Shown here: positions 45,223-54,458 of the stretch, piece after piece
How positions within the stretch are numbered: the stretch's first letter is position 1
Layout of the letters: each line of letters begins with the position of its first letter
Source of the DNA: Tilletia caries
Lineage: Eukaryota; Basidiomycota; Exobasidiomycetes; Tilletiales; Tilletiaceae
DNA: 64,000 nucleotides
Direction: 5' to 3'
NCBI GenBank assembly: GCA_032718865.1
Contig: JALUTQ010000040.1
Coordinates: 558,001 to 622,000, forward strand
The notes under the pieces: model-generated
The model's input: the letters and a program-made list of their open reading frames with translations, nothing else
What the model was told of the DNA's origin: nothing
Databases searched by the model: none
Program-made: the position numbers and the translations under genes

Positions 45223-45225
45223 ATG
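45223..45225. repeat. Left target-site duplication of the CACTA element
   Basis: ATG, repeated right after the other end at 53191-53193. CACTA transposons duplicate 2-3 bp. Confidence 0.7.
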
Positions 45226-45390
45226 CACTGTGCCAACGGTAGTAGTTTCCAGCCACCGAATACTCTTTGGAAATTGACAGTTTTCAGGAGGTTTTCTGAT
45301 CAGTGAAAACCTACCGGTTTTCATCGAGTTTTTTGAGCTCAGAATATCTTTCAGTCTTCAAGGAGTATTCGCTTGTCGAAAACTCAAAAA
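45226..45390 (+). repeat. Left terminal and subterminal repeats of the CACTA element
   Basis: Terminal CACTGTGCCAACGGTA, followed by CCACCGAATACT at 45255-45266 and several short TTTTC/GAAAA words up to about 45390 (CAGTTTTCAGG, GTGAAAACC, GGTTTTCATC, CGAAAACTC). Confidence 0.75.
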
Positions 45391-45730
45391 GGACTTGGCG
45401 AGTTCCAGGAGGTGACCTCCTCTTCGCCTCAAACCCTCACGTCCTCGCCAGAGCTATCGTCGTCAACACCTCCTGCGACTGGCTCGGTTATTATACTCCC
45501 GTCAGCTTCTCCTGAGTTCTGGGAACTCCAGCGCCTGGCACTCTGCGCTCGCCGCTCGGTCGCACTTGCTCGCCATCTTGTGGCCTCCGGGTTACGGATA
45601 GGTACAAGTACCTGTCGCTGGTAAGCCCTCTCCGTTCCTGGCTTGCGGGTGTTCTGGATATCGGTCACTCTGATCATTCATCTCCTCCTCTTTTCCTTGT
45701 CCAGCCTTCACACAAATCACAATCACGCCT

Positions 45731-46759
45731 ATGTCCGACCGATCTTCTCCCTTTGACGAGCAGCGTATCGACCCGTGGAAACACCTCGGCCATCCCAAAC
45801 CTGCTCCCGTCACACTGGCGCTTGAGCTGCTCACTTCACACGCTTCCAATGTTCGCATTCAGCGTCTCGTTCATTGGCAGGACGAACCGTTTATGTTTAC
45901 CGACCCGGACATCACAATGGAAGACCGATACGCCAGCTACCTTCGATACGCACGACGCGTCACCGCTTTCGATTACAGCAAATACGAGCTCCCCCATCAC
46001 TTCTACTCGGTCCTCGTCAATCTGGTCATCAACGTCGGGTCGACTGAAATCACGTATGCCCATCAACGTGCTCAGCAGACGATCATTGGTCGGGTCAAGG
46101 CAGAGGATTTGCCGACCTCTCCCGGCATCATTCGGGCACCTTTGGGCGACGCTTCCAACGATCAAACCGAGGAACGATCACCTGGGTCCATGGCGCTCGG
46201 TATCGGCGACGATATGTCTGAAGCAGGAGACTCTACGTTCTCATGGGGTGGACTGGCATCATCTTCAAGCCGCGCAAGCTCAATCACCACCTACGTTCCA
46301 GACTCTGCTCCATCTACGAGCGGAGGTTCACGCTCGTCGGTCCCATCATCATGGAGGCTCCCGTCAGTGAAGCATCGTCGTGGGCACAAAACTCCTCTCG
46401 GGTGGACGGATGCCCATGCGTATCGTTCAGTCCATCAGCCCACTCGTTTTAGGACGCCCGACCACCCAGCTCGCACTCCTGACGTGCCCGTTCGTCGTCC
46501 AGCCTCACGGTCTCCCGACTCGGTCGACTCGGTTTCCAACGAAGAAGATGGCCCTCCTTCCCCTCGCAAAAAGTCGAAGCTGACGCCTTTGCCGGAATCA
46601 CCACAGGATCCGGACTTCTTCATGTCCCCTCGCGGTTCTCGCTCTGGAACGATGCACGATGATCCCATCAATTCTGTCGATCCTGCCGCGGAGTCCGTCA
46701 CAGAGCCCAAATCCCCTGCTGCGGAGTCTGTCACGGAGCCCGAGTCGGAAGCCGATTGA
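45731..46759 (+). CDS. Accessory protein of the CACTA element, function unknown
   Basis: I do not recognise a family. Predicted 342 residues in one exon from the ATG at 45731. The first 130 residues look folded (LALELLTSHASNVRIQRLVH, ITMEDRYASYLRYARRVTAF, HHFYSVLVNLVINVG), while the rest is Ser/Pro/Asp-rich and disordered with a basic patch PRKKSKL that could be a nuclear localisation signal. The last residues repeat PAAESVTEP twice. No stop or frameshift breaks it. It lies between the left end of the element and the transposase, in the same orientation. CACTA elements often code a second, DNA-binding protein (TnpA-like), which this might be; there is no direct evidence. Confidence 0.6.
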   Translation: MSDRSSPFDEQRIDPWKHLGHPKPAPVTLALELLTSHASNVRIQRLVHWQDEPFMFTDPDITMEDRYASYLRYARRVTAFDYSKYELPHHFYSVLVNLVINVGSTEITYAHQRAQQTIIGRVKAEDLPTSPGIIRAPLGDASNDQTEERSPGSMALGIGDDMSEAGDSTFSWGGLASSSSRASSITTYVPDSAPSTSGGSRSSVPSSWRLPSVKHRRGHKTPLGWTDAHAYRSVHQPTRFRTPDHPARTPDVPVRRPASRSPDSVDSVSNEEDGPPSPRKKSKLTPLPESPQDPDFFMSPRGSRSGTMHDDPINSVDPAAESVTEPKSPAAESVTEPESEAD

Positions 46760-47029
46760 CCAGAACTTGTCCAGGCCTCGCCAGTGTCTATCGTACCTAT
46801 GACTCTCAATGCTCTCAAATCAATGACCCGTTCTATTATGCTTGATGCCGCTTGATATTGTGGCCTGTGACTGAGTCGTTTGAGATATCGGTGATGCTCA
46901 GCTGTCTGCATCGCCTCCTGAAATCTATCCGCACCTCGTCCATCTCCACGACAACACTCGCCAACGCCCAGCACCGAGCAAGCATCACGTATTCAAGTAC
47001 AGACTAACAGACACAGCAGCACACTCCAC

Positions 47030-50000
47030 ATGTCATCAAGATACCTCAGCACGGAGTCTGAGGGCGAGCAGGGCGTCGCGGGCGCGTCCGGGCGCAAACT
47101 GTGTCGTTGCAGGACGCGGTGTGGTTCGGAGGGTCGGTGGGTGCATTGGCGGACTTACAACGACCATCTTGTCGACTTTGACGAGGCCGACTCCTCGGGC
47201 TCTGACGAAGGCCTGGGTGGCGCGTCTGGCGGCGGCGGTTGGACGGAGGATCGGATGGATTCTGCTGCAGAGGACTTCGGACAGGTGAGTAGTATCGACT
47301 GGAAAGGGGAGGCTGGTGATGTCCGAGTTCTCTGATTCTTTCCCAACCTTGCTTCTTCATCTTCACTTCAGGGTATGGATTACTCTGATGAGGACGAGCT
47401 GTACCTGGGTCTCAACGAAGGACTGCTTCCCGCTCAAGAAGATCTGCTGGCGGGCGGGTTTGCTCTGGACGGAAACGGTGTCGGCGAGAGCGATTCGGAC
47501 TGTGGTTCGACAGCAGCACCCACCTCACAGCCAGAGTGGCTATGGCTGATGGAGATCATGCTGGTTTGGTGCAACGTTGTTCACGGTGTCTCGGATCGTA
47601 CATGCGAGCAGCTCCTCACCTTTCTCCAAGCTGTCGCGTACACGTTCTTGGCCGGCTCCACCGCTTCGAAGCAAAGGCCAGCTCCGAACCCTCGCATCAC
47701 TCGGGTCAGGAAGTCTCTTGGCCTAGAGGGTTATGGAATCACTTATGCGCTATGCCCGGATCGAACTTGCTGGACTCCGCATCTGCTCAAGACCGCGATC
47801 GAGCTCCAGACCAAACTATGCAGACGATGTGGCACGGCACTATTTTAAGATTTATCCGCGAACCCATCAAACACCCCTTCGCAACAGAACAATCCTCTCT
47901 CGCAGCGCCAAGTCAAGGTTCGATTTCGGTACGAGCCGATCTCGCATTGGATCAAACAGCTACTACCTCGACCGGACGTTTTTGCTTCTTGCAAGAAGTA
48001 CCAGCAACAACCGCGCCCCCCCCGGCATTTACCGCGACTTATACGACGGCTCGGAGTGGGCCGACCGTGAGGGCGATGATCGGTTCGACCTCGTTCTTCA
48101 TCTTTCACTGATGATAGACTGGGTTCAGCCGTTCTATCGACTAGGGACATCGTCGTACAGCTGCGGCGTTATTTCGGTTCGGGTAGACAACCTCCCCTTC
48201 CAAATGCGCAACTCTTCTTCGTACACGCATGTCTGCTGTATCCTGCCCGGCCCGCAAAAGCCCACATCGGACGGCCTTCAAGCGGCGCTCGAAATCATCG
48301 TCACGGAACTCCATCGGCTTCACGAAGACGGCATCCAAGTCGACGAGCTCATTGACGAACGGACACGTCAACCCCTCAAGGTTCGGATCAGACTTGCGCG
48401 CCTATTGGCGGATACCGATGCACGCACAATGACGGTTGGGTTTCCAGGTCACTCGTCCAAGGGGCAGTTCTGTCCGTGGTGCACGGTGGACGAAGGGGAG
48501 TGGGTCAAGTTGCTGCTGCGAGGGGAGGAAGGGTCGCCAAGGAGCGAGGCAGACCATCGACGCAACTGTCTGAAGGCTTTGCCAGATGCTATACCGCGGC
48601 TACGCCCTTTTTCAGGTGGACGCACTACGACGCGATCATGCCGCGGCCACCTGCGTTCTCTACAAGCTACCCGGATGGTCAAGCTTGGCCCACGCGCCCG
48701 TAGACGTGATGCATAACCTTGATCTTGGGCTATGCAAGCATTTCTGGATGCAGACGTGCGTCGATGGCAGCCTCATCGACTCGAAAGACCTACAAATCTG
48801 CAAAACGATTCTTCAAGAGACGACATATCCCACTGGAATCACCCGGATCAGTCCTGACCTGGGCCAGACATCAGGGGGGACCCCGACCGCAGCCGGCTGG
48901 TCGATCCTGTCTCAATACATCATGCCAGTTCTCCTCGCCTCCTCCTGGGCCACTCTTCTGCAAACATCGGCACAAAAGACCTTCCACAGCAAAAAGAAGA
49001 AGATGGTCAAGGAGGGATTGGCCGCTATTGCCGCAAGCTCAGCATCCAACCTTGTCAGCCCAGAGCTAGCCGGTAATGCGTCGACTTCGACGTCGATACA
49101 TGCTCCTGCCATCGCATCATCTTCGACATTAACTCCCACACGTGCACCGCCGACGTCGACACATGCTCCTGCCATCGCATCATCTTCGACATTAACTCCC
49201 ACACGCGCGGCAGCGGTGCATAGCCGTGCCAGACACGGCAAGCCCCGCAAAGGGAAAGAACCCGAGCCCCCCAAAGAAAAAGAACCAGAGTTTACTAAAT
49301 CAGTACCGATTGCTTCAATACTGGAAGCATCACTGGTGCTCGCCAGGGCGTGTCGATTGGCACACGGCAGGATCATAGAAGAGCCTCAAATCACAGTGCT
49401 GCACATGAGCTTGGTGACTTTCGCGACTCTGATTGCCACCCAAATTGGCTCCCCCTGGGTCACCTACAACTACCACATTGCCCTTCATATTGCCGATCAT
49501 ATTCGCCGTCACGGTCCAGCGTGGGCCTACTGGAGCTATCCACAAGAACGATCCTACGGACTGATGAAACGAGTGAGTAGACTGTGGTCTGTAGGGGTCG
49601 AGTCGTGATTCGTGTTCTATGTGCTGAATTCACTTGTCTCCTCTTCGTAGATCAGGACCAACAAGCACCGTGGTGGGGAGTTGGAACACACCATGCATAC
49701 TCGCAGCGAAGATCGTCATCGTATCATGGCCGTTCTGGAGTCAATGCCTGTCACGCCTCTCTCGCGGATACTGCGCGGCATCATCAGGGCCGAAGCAGGG
49801 ACTGAAGCAGGACCCGAAGCAGGGCCCGACGCAGGGTCCGGCGGAGGTCCCCAGAGCACTGGTTTGCTTCCCGACGAGTCAGGACTCCGTGACGAGGGAG
49901 ACAACGGTGACGGTGACGAGTCAGGAGTCCGTGACGATGGAGACAACGGTGACGATAACGATGCTACGAGCGACCCCGACGGAAATAGCACCGACCGTCC

Positions 50001-50550
50001 GATAACCCTCAGCATTGCAGATCTCCAGCGCATATGCTCATTGGCCAATCAACATCGCAATGAGGGTCAAGCTCTGTTCGTTCCCCTCTTCGACTATACC
50101 GGCCGCACGCGTCAGCTTGCCCTCGACTCCAGCGCGTACTATGTCGCCAAACTTGCTGTCGGGGAATTCGTACTGCGTCCGAGGAACAAACGTCACGGGC
50201 CACGATCAGACCCGTCTGCATGCTTCGTATCGACGCCGACAGGGTCAAGACTGGCGCATTTCCATTCGATCGTCCGCTTACCTTATTTCGACGAACGTCT
50301 ACGCGAACAGTTCAAGGAATACGCCGTGGTATACATTCTCGATGCGATTGCCTGGCCAGCTAGTCCCGGGTTGTCGTCACCGACGTGGAATCAACTCGGA
50401 TACCTCGCCGCTCGATCCCGGTCTGGCGTCCGAACCATCATCAAGATCGATAACATCTTGGGTCCTGCCATTGTCCTACCAGGCTCCCGCATTCTCGATG
50501 ATCAAGACGGCGTAATCGCGACCATGGTGCAGACCACGAAGAAGACTTGA
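47030..50550 (+). pseudogene. Tnp2-family (CACTA) transposase, broken by a stop and frameshifts
   Basis: Exon 1 is 47030-47284 and joins in phase 0 to 47372 onward. The Cys motifs LCRCRTRCG and CPDRTCW with CRRCG fit the zinc-binding front part. Frame 2 then meets TAA at 47846-47848 but continues with family sequence (KVRFRYEPISHWIKQLLPRP). At a C8 tract (48016-48023) the frame moves by +1: seven C would join it to GIYRDLYDGSEW, MIDWVQPFYR, CCILPGP and CPWCTV. A second shift near 48575-48610 leads to the frame with DVMHNLDLGLCKHFW and YGLMKR. A last intron (49573-49650) joins to INKHRGGELEHTM-like sequence and an end at 50550. The order IYRDLYDG, IPGP, CPWC, MHNLDLG, GGELE is that of Tnp2 transposases of basidiomycetes. 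One or more shifts could be sequencing errors; all three together suggest an inactive copy. Confidence 0.82.
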
Positions 50551-50940
50551 GCTCATACGCCTAACGCAGTATGTGAGTGCGCTGACTGGCCTCCTTTACA
50601 TACTTCCATCGTCTCATGTTCTCGTTTGCTGATTGCTGAACGACAAGTATCATATCTTGCAGTCCTCGGTGCTCTCTTTGCCCTGCCGAGGCCCGAGTGC
50701 CGCCAGCTGTCAATTTGCATGACAACTCAGACCACTGCTTCATGCTCGTGGAGGGAAAGATCAAAGAACTATGTGGATTGTGATCGAGTCGAAATAAACG
50801 AACAAACTGACCGAACGATTGAATAGGCGAAACCCTTAACCCAGCAGCGGACAGGCTAACTGGCTGACAACTTCTGCAACCCTCTCCCCCTTTTTTTAAT
50901 CTCCGGCTCCTGTCTAACCAGGTCCGGCGTCGTCCCCACC
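50551..50940. other. Tail-to-tail spacer inside the CACTA element
   Basis: 390 bp between the transposase and the minus-strand gene. No gene is seen. Confidence 0.35.
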
Positions 50941-52152
50941 TCACTCTGAGTCCTCCTCATCGTCACTTCGCTCGGGGTCATCGGCCTCATCGCTATCTTG
51001 ATCGCTGCGGCGAAGGATATCGCCGTCGCCGGCGCTGAGGTCGCCGTCCTCGTTTCCACGTTGACTGGGTGTGGAGAACATTGACCAGTCCGGGTCTTCG
51101 CCCCAGTCCTTTGCAGCTTTGACCGCAGAGAACCGATCTTCAAATGGACCAGCATTGTCCGATACATCGACGCACGCATCCGGGTTCGCTTCTGCCCAGG
51201 ATCGAGCAACCATCCACCGACGAATGTTGGAAGGCAACGTAAATCCAGGAGGTACGTCTTGAAGGCGCCGAGGCGGAAGCGTGATTTTGGCCGGCTGACG
51301 CTTTCGCTTCTTGTCCAAACTCTCAAGCTGTGAGATGAGGCACGCCGAGCGCCAGATCAGACCCACCCGACGGCGAGCTGTGTACCCGGATGGGTCTTCG
51401 TCCATACCATCGTTGTCCGAGTCGGCGTCTGAGGATGATCGACGTGGAGCCCTGCCTTTGCCCTTGTCTTCAACGGGCACCCATTCGTCTTCTTCATCAC
51501 TCATAGCGAATTTCTGAACGGCAAACTCCACATCCGCCCGCACCGCCCCTTGTCGCACCTGACGAGCATCGTCCTTCTCCTTGGGCTTCGAAACCTTCGC
51601 ACCATCAGAGAAAAGGTAGTATCGGTCGATCCGCAGCGCTTTGGCACGCGCCACCGATTTCCGTTCTCGGCGCGACGTTTCTACGGACCGAGCTAACGCA
51701 GCTTCTTTTTTCTTTTGACCAGTAGATGAGAGCGAGCGTGTGTATTCTGTGGCCCAACCGTCGAACGTTACGGCGCACCTCGCGATGAGTTCTTCGAGCG
51801 TCATATCGGGCGGGACACCACACCTCTGCCGATGAGCCAGCATGTATCGGAAATACCGGCGGAGTTGATTCTGGTTGATCGGATCGTTGTACGGGCGACC
51901 TAAGTGCAGCCGAAGTTGATCTCCGCTGGTGAGCTCCTGTTCCGCGCTTTGAGACTCGCTGGGACCCGACGTCTCGGTACTATGAGAAGGAGGATGCTTC
52001 GGCCAAGCGCCACGGGCGGGATACGCCTGCTTAACGATGTTTTTTCCTCCTCGCAGTCCACCATACCCGACGTAAACGAGCCTGCGGAAACTTGCATGTA
52101 GCTTTGGAGTCCGATGTTTTTCTCGAAATAGGCGGCGCCGACGGACCTCCAT
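50941..52152 (-). CDS. Second accessory protein of the CACTA element, function unknown
   Basis: I do not recognise a family. Predicted 403 residues from the ATG at 52152. It begins with a very basic segment (VRRRRLFREKHR), continues with a region that looks folded (NQNQLRRYFRYMLAHRQRCG, then TLEELIARCAVTFDGW), then charged helices, and ends in a strongly acidic tail (SDQDSDEADDPERSDDEEDS). KKRKRQPAK could be a nuclear localisation signal. Upstream on the same strand, another frame (about 52300-52031) holds a coiled-coil-like stretch (EERVAILEELLESA, then RKQRKELNRLG); a frameshift or intron may separate it from this gene, so the true start may lie further up. The gene points toward the transposase, tail to tail. 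Confidence 0.55.
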   Translation of the reverse strand: MEVRRRRLFREKHRTPKLHASFRRLVYVGYGGLRGGKNIVKQAYPARGAWPKHPPSHSTETSGPSESQSAEQELTSGDQLRLHLGRPYNDPINQNQLRRYFRYMLAHRQRCGVPPDMTLEELIARCAVTFDGWATEYTRSLSSTGQKKKEAALARSVETSRRERKSVARAKALRIDRYYLFSDGAKVSKPKEKDDARQVRQGAVRADVEFAVQKFAMSDEEDEWVPVEDKGKGRAPRRSSSDADSDNDGMDEDPSGYTARRRVGLIWRSACLISQLESLDKKRKRQPAKITLPPRRLQDVPPGFTLPSNIRRWMVARSWAEANPDACVDVSDNAGPFEDRFSAVKAAKDWGEDPDWSMFSTPSQRGNEDGDLSAGDGDILRRSDQDSDEADDPERSDDEEDSE

Positions 52153-53190
52153 TCGGGTTTCGACCCAATCGATTCAACTCTTTACGTTGTTTGCGAGTCG
52201 TCACTTGAGCGGACTGGGACGCGACCCCACTTGTCGCCGACTCCAACAGCTCCTCTAGGATAGCCACACGTTCTTCGAGAGTACGAACCTCGGCTGCACT
52301 TGCGGTTCTTCCCCCTATGGGCAGACGGGCTAATAGTGTAGGGGCTGGGCTCGGCCATACTGATTTACTGACGCAGAGTCGCAGACCGTAGTAACCTGAC
52401 GCAGAGGGAGGACGTGGAGAGATCAGAGCACAACGATTGACCCCAACTGACTTTGATTCTTGACTTTATATACGACAGACACGGAAGCTGCTGACAGTTG
52501 ACCGCTAAACAATTATCCCCATCCTGTGATTCCTCAGTAGTCTGCACAGGTCATCAATTGCAAGCAAAACCGGGAGATCAAGGAGGTCAGGCTCGTAAAG
52601 GAGGTCAAGGAGACGGTCCACAAGCAAGCGAGGTCGCGAGCATCGTCCGTCCGTCAGGAGAGGAAACACGGTGAGGGGGCGGGGGCAATCCGTAGGGCGC
52701 GATGCCGCGATCGACTCGAAGCCCGGTGGCAAGGAGAGCCTGGAGAAGCAAAGCATAAGGGAAGCGAAGGGCGGGGCGCGAGGGTGAGGCGAACCGACGG
52801 GAAAAGATATCTGGAGGACTGGAGTAGAGTAGGGAGGAAGGGCTGTGAGCGGAACCTGTACAGAGCTCAAGCTCGCTGCTCGAAGAGCTGGCAATCACCA
52901 TACACCGCGTACCATGTATGCGCAGCATCATGTCTAACTCCTGTACCGATACGCAGCGCTTGAAGCTTGAACGGATTGACCAAGCGAGGAAGGAGTCGCG
53001 GGCGGGAGGGTCAAGGGAAGCGACAAACACCCCCTGAACCTGGGAAGACGAAAATCTCACGGAAAGGCAAATCCAACATCCGAATACGCTCAGAAAACTG
53101 GAGCGGATTAAAAAGTTTTCGAGGACGGAAACTACGACGTAGTTTTCACCCAGTTTTCATCCACCGAATACTGGTTACCGTTTCGCAGTG
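52153..53190 (-). repeat. Right non-coding end and subterminal repeats of the CACTA element
   Basis: From about 53085 to 53190 several GAAAAC/GTTTTC words (AGAAAACTGG, AAGTTTTCGAGG, AGTTTTCACCC, AGTTTTCATCC) lead to CCACCGAATACT at 53161-53170 region and the terminal CAGTG. The rest, about 52310-53080, contains no supported gene apart from the possible upstream coiled-coil frame near 52031-52300. Confidence 0.6.
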
Positions 53191-53193
53191 ATG
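53191..53193. repeat. Right target-site duplication of the CACTA element
   Basis: ATG, identical to 45223-45225. Confidence 0.7.
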
Positions 53194-53449: not shown

Positions 53450-54458
53450 ATGGGTCTCTTCAACAGCTCCAATGCCCCCGAGCCCGCGGCCGTCCTCGCG
53501 CCGGTGCCCCACCCCATCGGTGTCCTCCCGCAGTACACCATCCACACCCAGCAGATGGCCCTCAAGATACGCGAACGCAAGACCGGATTCTCCGGTGACA
53601 ACTTCAAGGTCAAGGATGCCGTTACCGATCAGTCAATCTTCCAAGTCGATGGCAAGGCGTTCTCCCTCTCGTCTTCTAAGCACATCTTGGACGCGTGAGT
53701 GTGGCCATAATCAACGCGTCTTGGCATGTAGTCCGCTGATTTCCCATTCTTTCCCCTTCCACAGAAACGGACAGACTCTCTTCACCCTCAAGTGAGTCTA
53801 CATCATAGTTCAGGCAGTAAACGTCGTTACTCAGACCAGTTTTCTTCTCCAATCGGTTCAGGAAGAAGCTCATCTCCATTCACATGACCTACGAAGGCTA
53901 CGCCCCCAACACCGACGAGCCCCTCTTCACCGTCAAGTCCGGCTTCTCCTTCGGAACCAAGCTTACCGCCAGCTTCACAAACCGCGCCGCAGCCGGCGGA
54001 GGCGCGGCCGGTGAGCCCGTCACCCTCGTGCTGAAGGGCGACCTGTTCGATCGCAAGGCGGAGATTTGCACGGAGGCGGGCGTGCCCGTTGCGCGGATTT
54101 CGAGGTCGTTTGCGAACATGGGACAGCTGTTCTTTGACACGCAAACCTACATCCTCACTGTGAGTTTTCCTCGTCGGACGATTTCCAATAATGATAGAAA
54201 GAACGCGCGCGCGTGCGCTGATGAGGTTCTGACATCGCTTTCTCTTCGACAGATCGCCCCTGGTGTTGACGCCGCCCTCCTCCTGGCTATTTGCATCGTT
54301 CTCGACGAGAGTGAGTCCGTCTTAACCTGATTCATTCCACTTTCCCGCGGAGACCCGCATTATTCATCACCCATCGCTCCTCTCCCACAGAGGCGAACGA
54401 AGACAAGCACTAATCGCCCCCTTGCCTTCCAACAGAGGCCAACGAAGGAAGTTCCTAA
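53450..54458 (+). CDS. LURP-one-related / tubby C-terminal-like protein, 5 exons with two possible last exons
   Basis: Predicted 216 residues. Exons: 53450-53694, 53765-53791, 53862-54159, 54253-54310, then either 54391-54413 or 54436-54458. The sequence has the LURP-one (DUF567) pattern: LKIRERKTGFSGDNFKVKDA near the start, IFQVDGKAFSLSSSKHILDA, LFTLKKKLISIH, then KGDLFDRKAEI, VARISRSFAN and YILTIAPGVDAALLLAICIV, which is the closing strand and central hydrophobic helix of the tubby-like barrel. Related proteins (phospholipid scramblase superfamily) are thought to bind phosphoinositides at membranes; the function in fungi is not established. Two acceptor sites 45 bp apart give nearly the same tail, KANEDKH or KANEGSS, so the last exon appears duplicated. 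The gene has a good TATA box. Confidence 0.85.

What the first reader, a model, noticed from the sequence alone, without database searches (positions are those of the whole stretch)
45226..53190. Full-length CACTA-type transposon with CACTG ends and ATG target duplication
Both ends can be defined to the base: inverted CACTG termini with a similar next 11 bp, shared subterminal words (CCACCGAATACT and GTTTTC/GAAAAC words) and ATG on both outer sides. Inside are a Tnp2 transposase and two further genes of unknown family, one on each side. I infer a three-gene fungal CACTA element; the two accessory proteins appear undescribed to me.
Basis: partly seen in the sequence, partly recalled or inferred. 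Interest (0 to 1): 0.8.

Follow-up and report, generated by a model that had tools for sequence, protein, structure and literature searches.

The report
Fungal CACTA transposon with partner gene
This stretch is a real cut-and-paste jumping gene of a wheat-bunt fungus, one of several related families in that genome, and most of its relatives carry, facing the transposase gene, a second gene of a family with no assigned function.

Summary
Confirmed and extended. Window 45226-53190 is a CACTA/EnSpm transposon in a Tilletia (wheat bunt) genome. A second copy (99% identical) ends at the same bases with different flanks and another 3-bp duplication (GAT; here ATG). Five complete copies of related families B and C have CACTG-type ends; with the two family A copies, 7 of 7 have matched 3-bp duplications. 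A more distant family D has 20-bp CACTG inverted repeats, 14 of 17 matched duplications, and deletion derivatives of about 0.83 kb. One family C insertion has an exact empty site elsewhere (477 ungapped bases, one CAT). The new part is that gene, ORF3: in pooled searches 44 of 47 ORF3 loci lie convergent to a Tnp2 gene and 44 of 52 Tnp2 loci have one (random placement: mean 0.4). The homologues found are all Tilletia; no Pfam family or known fold matched. AGTTTTC words concentrate at the element ends. I infer, without proof, that ORF3 is the counterpart of plant TnpA/Tnp1. One ORF3-like gene stands alone.

The parts
45226..53190 (+). CACTA transposon, family A, 7965 bp
   Evidence: second copy at C34 with identical end bases, other flanks and another 3-bp duplication
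45223..45225 (.). left copy of target-site duplication ATG
53191..53193 (.). right copy of target-site duplication ATG
45226..45241 (+). left terminal inverted repeat CACTGTGCCAACGGTA
53175..53190 (-). right terminal inverted repeat CACTGCGAAACGGTAA (read on the minus strand)
45253..45264 (+). subterminal word CCACCGAATACT, left
   Evidence: direct repeat D7
53161..53172 (+). subterminal word CCACCGAATACT, right
   Evidence: direct repeat D7
45279..45384 (.). left subterminal AGTTTTC-type sites (45279-45285 plus, 45378-45384 minus); the site at element position 54 is kept in all 7 complete copies of families A, B and C
53093..53158 (.). right subterminal AGTTTTC-type sites (53093 minus; 53114, 53141, 53152 plus)
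45731..46759 (+). ORF1, 342 aa, open frame; low-complexity, fast-evolving accessory gene
47030..50550 (+). Tnp2 transposase gene (likely introns 47285-47371 and 49573-49650 by GT..AG and frame, not confirmed by transcripts); frame broken in this copy by a stop at 47846-47848 and by frame changes
48108..48134 (+). first catalytic D region (LMIDWVQPF)
   Evidence: role recalled from CACTA alignments
48402..48482 (+). second catalytic D region and C(2)C motif (DTDARTMTVGFPGHSSKGQFCPWC)
   Evidence: role recalled
49474..49572 (+). H(3)H motif and catalytic E region (HIALH ... YPQERSYGLMKR)
   Evidence: role recalled
50941..52348 (-).

Best explanation
The window holds a complete-ended but probably no longer self-sufficient copy of a fungal CACTA/EnSpm cut-and-paste transposon. 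Shown: defined CACTG ends, 3-bp target duplications, several families in the genome, an exact empty site for a family C copy, a Tnp2-type DDE transposase, and a convergent partner gene (ORF3) kept across the element families. Inferred: Tnp2 cuts at the CACTG ends and joins the element to a staggered 3-bp target; ORF3, perhaps with ORF1, binds the AGTTTTC-type words clustered within about 150 bp of each end and brings the ends together, as TnpA/Tnp1 do in plant CACTA elements. The window copy could then move only with proteins supplied by another copy. The confidence given is for the shown part; for the ORF3 role it is about 0.4-0.5.
For: Two family A copies with the same end bases and different flanks and duplications. 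7 of 7 complete A-C copies have matched 3-bp duplications: ATG, GAT, AAC, TGA, ACT, AGA, CAT (chance about 2e-13). Family D: 14 of 17 end pairs (about 3e-23). Empty site for C_C40: 477 bases ungapped, 472 identical, one CAT. PF02992 above its curated cut-off for three proteins. All six motif patterns that I wrote are found in 7 of 7 complete A-C copies. ORF3: 44 of 47 loci convergent to Tnp2 within 8 kb, 44 of 52 Tnp2 loci paired; random placement mean 0.39, maximum 3 in 1000 trials. ORF3 dN 0.24-0.43 in 6 family pairs; dS 2.1-2.3 in three pairs and not computable in three. AGTTTTC: 17 in the terminal 250 bp of three elements against 1 in about 23.8 kb of interior.
Against: No direct evidence that ORF3 or ORF1 binds DNA: no Pfam match, ORF3 model of low confidence (pLDDT 59, pTM 0.33) with 0 of 19 PDB matches at E <= 0.001, ORF1 model unusable (pLDDT 39). 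Tnp2 frames are interrupted in both family A copies; single-base differences in homopolymers could be assembly errors. ORF1 is recognisable only between A and B and marginally in C (E 0.002-0.004). 3 of 17 family D end pairs lack a matched duplication. The motif patterns were shaped on family A: in the 7 family D loci three of the six found nothing, and the D1 pattern found nothing in E. 8 of 52 Tnp2 loci have no detected ORF3. No empty site was found for the window copy itself or for five other A-C copies. The 44 pairs are not independent events, since copies within a family share descent.
Confidence: 0.87

Rival explanations
1. ORF3 is a passenger or self-protection gene, for example against silencing, rather than part of the transposition machinery, as is proposed for TET/JBP genes in other fungal DNA transposons.
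For: Fungal EnSpm and other DNA transposons can carry TET/JBP genes (PMC12730594, passages). ORF3 has no recognisable DNA-binding domain. A stand-alone ORF3-like gene exists with no Tnp2 detected within 12 kb.
Against: ORF3 is found beside most Tnp2 loci detected (44 of 52), including families with Tnp2 only 31-37% identical to the query, which is more than expected of an optional passenger. No enzyme signature was found by Pfam.
Confidence: 0.3
2. It belongs to another CMC lineage (Plavaka, ESTA, Mirage, Chapaev) rather than CACTA/EnSpm.
For: These lineages mostly share CA..TG ends and the C(2)C/H(3-4)H motifs (PMC12730594, passages). No transposase tree was built here.
Against: 3-bp duplications in 21 of 24 end pairs tested, CACTG ends, and PF02992 as the only Pfam family above its cut-off. 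By the passages, fungal families with CAC..GTG ends and 3-bp duplications were classed as EnSpm, and ESTA makes TA duplications.
Confidence: 0.06
3. The region is a segmental duplication or a chance set of genes between similar short words, not a transposon.
For: Only two family A copies were found in the assembly.
Against: Exact common ends, unrelated flanks, 3-bp duplications, related families with the same anatomy, and an exact empty site for one of them.
Confidence: 0.01

Closest known systems
CNIRT6 of Cryptococcus neoformans (CACTA superfamily)
   Same: Basidiomycete, about 7.5 kb, inverted repeats beginning CACTG, 3-bp duplications of variable sequence, CMC-type DDE transposase (PMC12810828, passages)
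Fungal EnSpm families of Puccinia and other rusts (PMC12730594, passages)
   Same: CAC..GTG ends, 3-bp duplications, EnSpm-like transposase
   Different: the families described there carry a TET/JBP gene; the window element carries ORF1 and ORF3, and no Pfam enzyme family other than the transposase was found in its frames
Plant CACTA elements (maize Spm/En, Antirrhinum Tam1, soybean Tgmt*)
   Same: Tnp2 transposase, short CACTA-type ends, 3-bp duplication, subterminal repeats; a second protein (TnpA/Tnp1) that binds the repeats and varies strongly between elements (PMC2613891, passages)
   Different: in Spm and Tgmt* the second protein comes from the same transcription unit by alternative splicing (passages); here ORF3 is a separate gene on the opposite strand, and no Pfam family matched it

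Membership tests
CACTA/EnSpm superfamily | Tnp2-type transposase (PF02992) | tested here: met
   33.3 bits against cut-off 28.6 for the window fragment; 28.8 and 40.5 bits for two relatives
CACTA/EnSpm superfamily | DDE residues with C(2)C and H(3-4)H motifs | tested here: met
   all six motif patterns in 7 of 7 complete A-C copies, in whatever frame, without a check of frame continuity. The patterns were shaped on these families: in the 7 family D loci the D1, MHN and E patterns found nothing, and D1 found nothing in E. Catalytic assignment by recall and by the motif description.
CACTA/EnSpm superfamily | short inverted repeats starting CACTA or CACTG | tested here: met
   43 of 48 ends start CACTG; within those five bases the other 5 differ at the first base only
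CACTA/EnSpm superfamily | 3-bp target-site duplication | tested here: met
   7 of 7 and 14 of 17
CACTA/EnSpm superfamily | subterminal repeated motifs | tested here: met
   AGTTTTC 17 terminal against 1 interior in one element each of A, B and C; the word was picked from the same elements; not tested in family D
CACTA/EnSpm superfamily | precise empty site with one copy of the duplication | tested here: met
   met for 1 of 7 copies, C_C40 of family C; none found for the window copy and the other five
CACTA/EnSpm superfamily | transposase groups with EnSpm in a tree | not tested
   no reference transposases were on hand; no tree was built
TnpA/Tnp1-type accessory protein (ORF3) | encoded by the element and kept with the transposase | tested here: met
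   44 of 47 ORF3 loci convergent with Tnp2; within the ends in the complete A-C copies
TnpA/Tnp1-type accessory protein (ORF3) | binds the subterminal repeats | not testable with these tools
   needs a binding assay; referred
TnpA/Tnp1-type accessory protein (ORF3) | sequence or fold similarity to a known DNA-binding domain | tested here: inconclusive
   no Pfam match, weak model, no PDB match at E <= 0.001

The most novel reading that the evidence does not exclude
ORF3 founds a new family of transposon partner proteins: a lineage-specific counterpart of plant TnpA that recognises the element ends, encoded on the opposite strand facing Tnp2 in most CACTA elements of this Tilletia genome, and at least once taken over as (or derived from) a free-standing fungal gene with a glutamine-rich tail.
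Probability: 0.4. Interest if true: 0.65.

Novelty: new variant of a known kind. Interest (0 to 1): 0.5.

Why it matters
Plant CACTA elements need two proteins (passages). For the Schistosoma element the DNA-binding partner was proposed only by analogy (passages), and the fungal papers whose passages I read do not name one. A convergent gene kept beside Tnp2 across distant families of one fungal genome is a concrete candidate. Exact ends, several families, deletion derivatives and an empty site also make this genome a good one for annotating fungal CACTA elements.

Tried and rejected
ORF3 fold (471 aa, 12 sequences): pLDDT 59, 0 of 19 PDB matches at E <= 0.001. ORF1 fold (3 sequences): pLDDT 39, not used. 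PDB sequence searches with Tnp2 and the ORF3 profile gave only matches at E 0.14 or worse. Profile search for ORF3 outside Tilletia: 12 hits, all Tilletia; only candidates of 0.55-1.75 times the query length that share exact words, and only the 7988 best, were scored, so relatives elsewhere are not excluded. No short derivatives of families A-C were found with their six 220-bp end sequences, unlike family D. Family E (C1:603383): right end CAGTG found, left end not found in the sequence held. Empty sites for the other six A-C insertions: none found with 120 bases on each side. The pattern search gave 55 matches against 5 for its control. Only 17 end pairs were fetched and counted; the single C22 end was fetched and left out of the pair count (it starts TACTG), and the ends with one particular internal mismatch (CACTGCCACCTTGGG...) were not fetched. 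One search scanned one frame of the downstream gene wrongly; one search replaces it. One search gave no hAT match for the empty-site frame, so 'hAT-like' there is only my impression. Segmental duplication and other CMC lineages were considered and rejected, as argued under rivals.
Full report
The element. The 7965 bp at 45226-53190 begin CACTGTGCCAACGGTA and end in the inverse of CACTGCGAAACGGTAA, with ATG on both outer sides. A search of the own genome with the whole element found one other near-identical copy, C34:1082017-1090086, minus strand, 8070 bp, 96.6-99.2% identical in its three main blastn pieces. It begins and ends at exactly the same bases but has unrelated flanks and a GAT duplication. 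The global alignment of the two copies has 37 substitutions and 11 indels of 1 to 63 bases.

Related families. One search also found matches at 66-82% identity. Families B (three complete copies on C1, C25, C30; one truncated on C5) and C (C1, C40) were bounded by comparing copies. Their complete copies are 8272-9594 bp long. All seven complete copies of A, B and C have a 3-bp repeat immediately outside the CACTG-type ends: ATG, GAT, AAC, TGA, ACT, AGA, CAT. For C_C40, the flanks joined with a single CAT matched another place, C1:544982-545222. With longer flanks the match is 477 bases, ungapped, 472 identical: an exact empty site. The surrounding sequence looked hAT-like to me, but Pfam did not confirm that. 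Family D (Tnp2 40-51% identical to the family B query) ends in CAGTG in five of five copies examined. A pattern search with its 20-bp end gave 55 matches, against 5 for the reversed control. Of the 17 end pairs that I fetched with flanks, 14 have a matched 3-bp duplication, and 13 match the 20-bp pattern exactly at both ends. The pairs span 659 bp to 24.7 kb. Those of about 0.83 kb share about 130 bp with the right ends of five D copies and about 137 bp with the left end of the C27 copy, so they look like deletion derivatives. Not every end listed was fetched.

The host. The best protein matches are 97-100% identical to Tilletia controversa and T. caries proteins. The 38.1-Mb genome resembles the 38.18 Mb reported for T. 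caries (abstract start in the listing, PMC10684912). I conclude a wheat-bunt Tilletia; the species is not settled.

Transposase. A window frame matches PF02992 at 33.3 bits (cut-off 28.6). The D, D, C(2)C, H(3)H and E motifs lie at 48108-48134, 48402-48482 and 49474-49572; their catalytic assignment is by recall and by the description. Two introns are likely from GT..AG borders and frame. The window copy is interrupted by an in-frame stop at 47846-47848 and by frame changes; the C34 copy is also interrupted, partly elsewhere. Family B has a longer open frame (770 aa stop to stop in B_C1). Several differences between the two A copies sit in homopolymer runs, so assembly error is possible.

ORF3. 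The 403-residue frame matches T. controversa P0001 from residue 79 on. The 12 database proteins first found are 372-611 residues long, some marked partial; open frames in this genome's A-C copies other than the window's run to 473-638 residues stop to stop, as far as listed. They have a predicted N-terminal helix (low confidence) and a conserved C-terminal RRWMV...VSDNAGPF block. Protein searches gave 12 hits with one sequence and 12 with the profile, all Tilletia, including T. indica and T. horrida. In the genome, P0001 found 21 loci. A second query, from the divergent stand-alone gene at C1:1917686-1919713 (hhalign probability 98.3%, E 1.5e-14 to the ORF3 profile), found many more. Pooling two Tnp2 queries and two ORF3 queries gives 52 Tnp2 and 47 ORF3 loci after clustering. 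Of these, 44 ORF3 loci are convergent with a Tnp2 locus at 0.96-5.4 kb, and 44 Tnp2 loci are paired. Random placement on the contigs with hits, with contig lengths approximated by the last hit, gave a mean of 0.39 and a maximum of 3 in 1000 trials. The genome searches score only the best candidates, so the loci are lower bounds. The unpaired ORF3 loci are the truncated B copy on C5 (which keeps a Tnp2 C-terminal remnant), C19:692236, and the stand-alone gene. Eight Tnp2 loci, two of them fragments under 300 bp, had no detected ORF3. ORF3 shows dN 0.24-0.43 in six family pairs; dS was 2.1-2.3 in three and not computable in three, which indicates purifying selection with saturated dS.

ORF1. The 342-residue frame is open and has two database hits, both Tilletia; one is an annotation that joins it to an upstream sequence that is not part of the element. 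In this genome it matches only families A and B (38%), with a marginal match in C. It is mostly low-complexity.

Subterminal words. AGTTTTC/GAAAACT occurs 17 times in the terminal 250 bp of A_W, B_C1 and C_C40 and once in about 23.8 kb of their interior; the rest of the window has 5 in 56 kb. The word was picked from these same elements, so the test is descriptive. A site at element position 54 is kept in all seven copies of A-C, and other positions recur between families.

Comparison with what is known. CNIRT6 of Cryptococcus (passages of PMC12810828) is an active CACTG-ended fungal CACTA element with 3-bp duplications, so the window element is not a new class. Fungal EnSpm with CAC..GTG ends is described in passages of PMC12730594. 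Plant TnpA/Tnp1 proteins bind subterminal repeats and differ strongly between elements (PMC2613891, passages; PMC1636069, passages). CACTA elements have been counted in T. indica (PMC6547692, passage); the main text held of a comparative genomics paper on bunt fungi has no occurrence of CACTA or EnSpm (PMC9172201). My library searches for fungal or Tilletia CACTA elements and accessory genes listed no paper that I could recognise, from titles, abstract starts and the passages read, as describing an ORF3-like partner; the library lacks most subscription journals.

Verdict. The observation and the main interpretation hold. The element is a member of CACTA/EnSpm by every feature that I tested; a transposase tree was not built. 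The added finding is the convergent ORF3 family. That it acts like TnpA is my inference (about 0.4-0.5).

Noticed in passing
G000 C1:1917686-1919713 (L032 458-3856, minus strand): A stand-alone ORF3-like gene with a 1175-aa open frame and a Q-rich C-terminus; no Tnp2 was detected within 12 kb, and a carboxylesterase gene lies beside it. It may be a domesticated transposon gene or the source of ORF3.
   Followed up: partly
Element ends of families A-D: The first base of the terminus is G or T instead of C at 5 of 48 ends, against 0 of 192 at positions 2-5 (Fisher p 0.0003; ends of one family are not independent). One 692-bp element on C30 has G at both ends with a perfect ATC duplication. This may hint at one-base staggered cleavage or repair at the end.
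   Followed up: partly
G000 C4:679299-680123, C7:2420993-2421821, C1:1947870-1948696: Short non-autonomous elements (about 0.83 kb) that share both ends with family D elements; another group of about 0.69 kb has the same 20-bp ends and a different interior.
   Followed up: partly
window 53450-54330: The element ends about 260 bp upstream of the start of a gene whose first exon matches LURP-one-related (PF04525, 27.7 bits, cut-off 24.5; a second exon 17.7 bits, below cut-off), so it may affect that gene's promoter.
   Followed up: no
protein P0013 (T. controversa): A public gene model joins ORF1 to an upstream sequence that is not part of the element, which suggests an insertion beside or in another gene in that strain, or a wrong gene model.
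   Followed up: no
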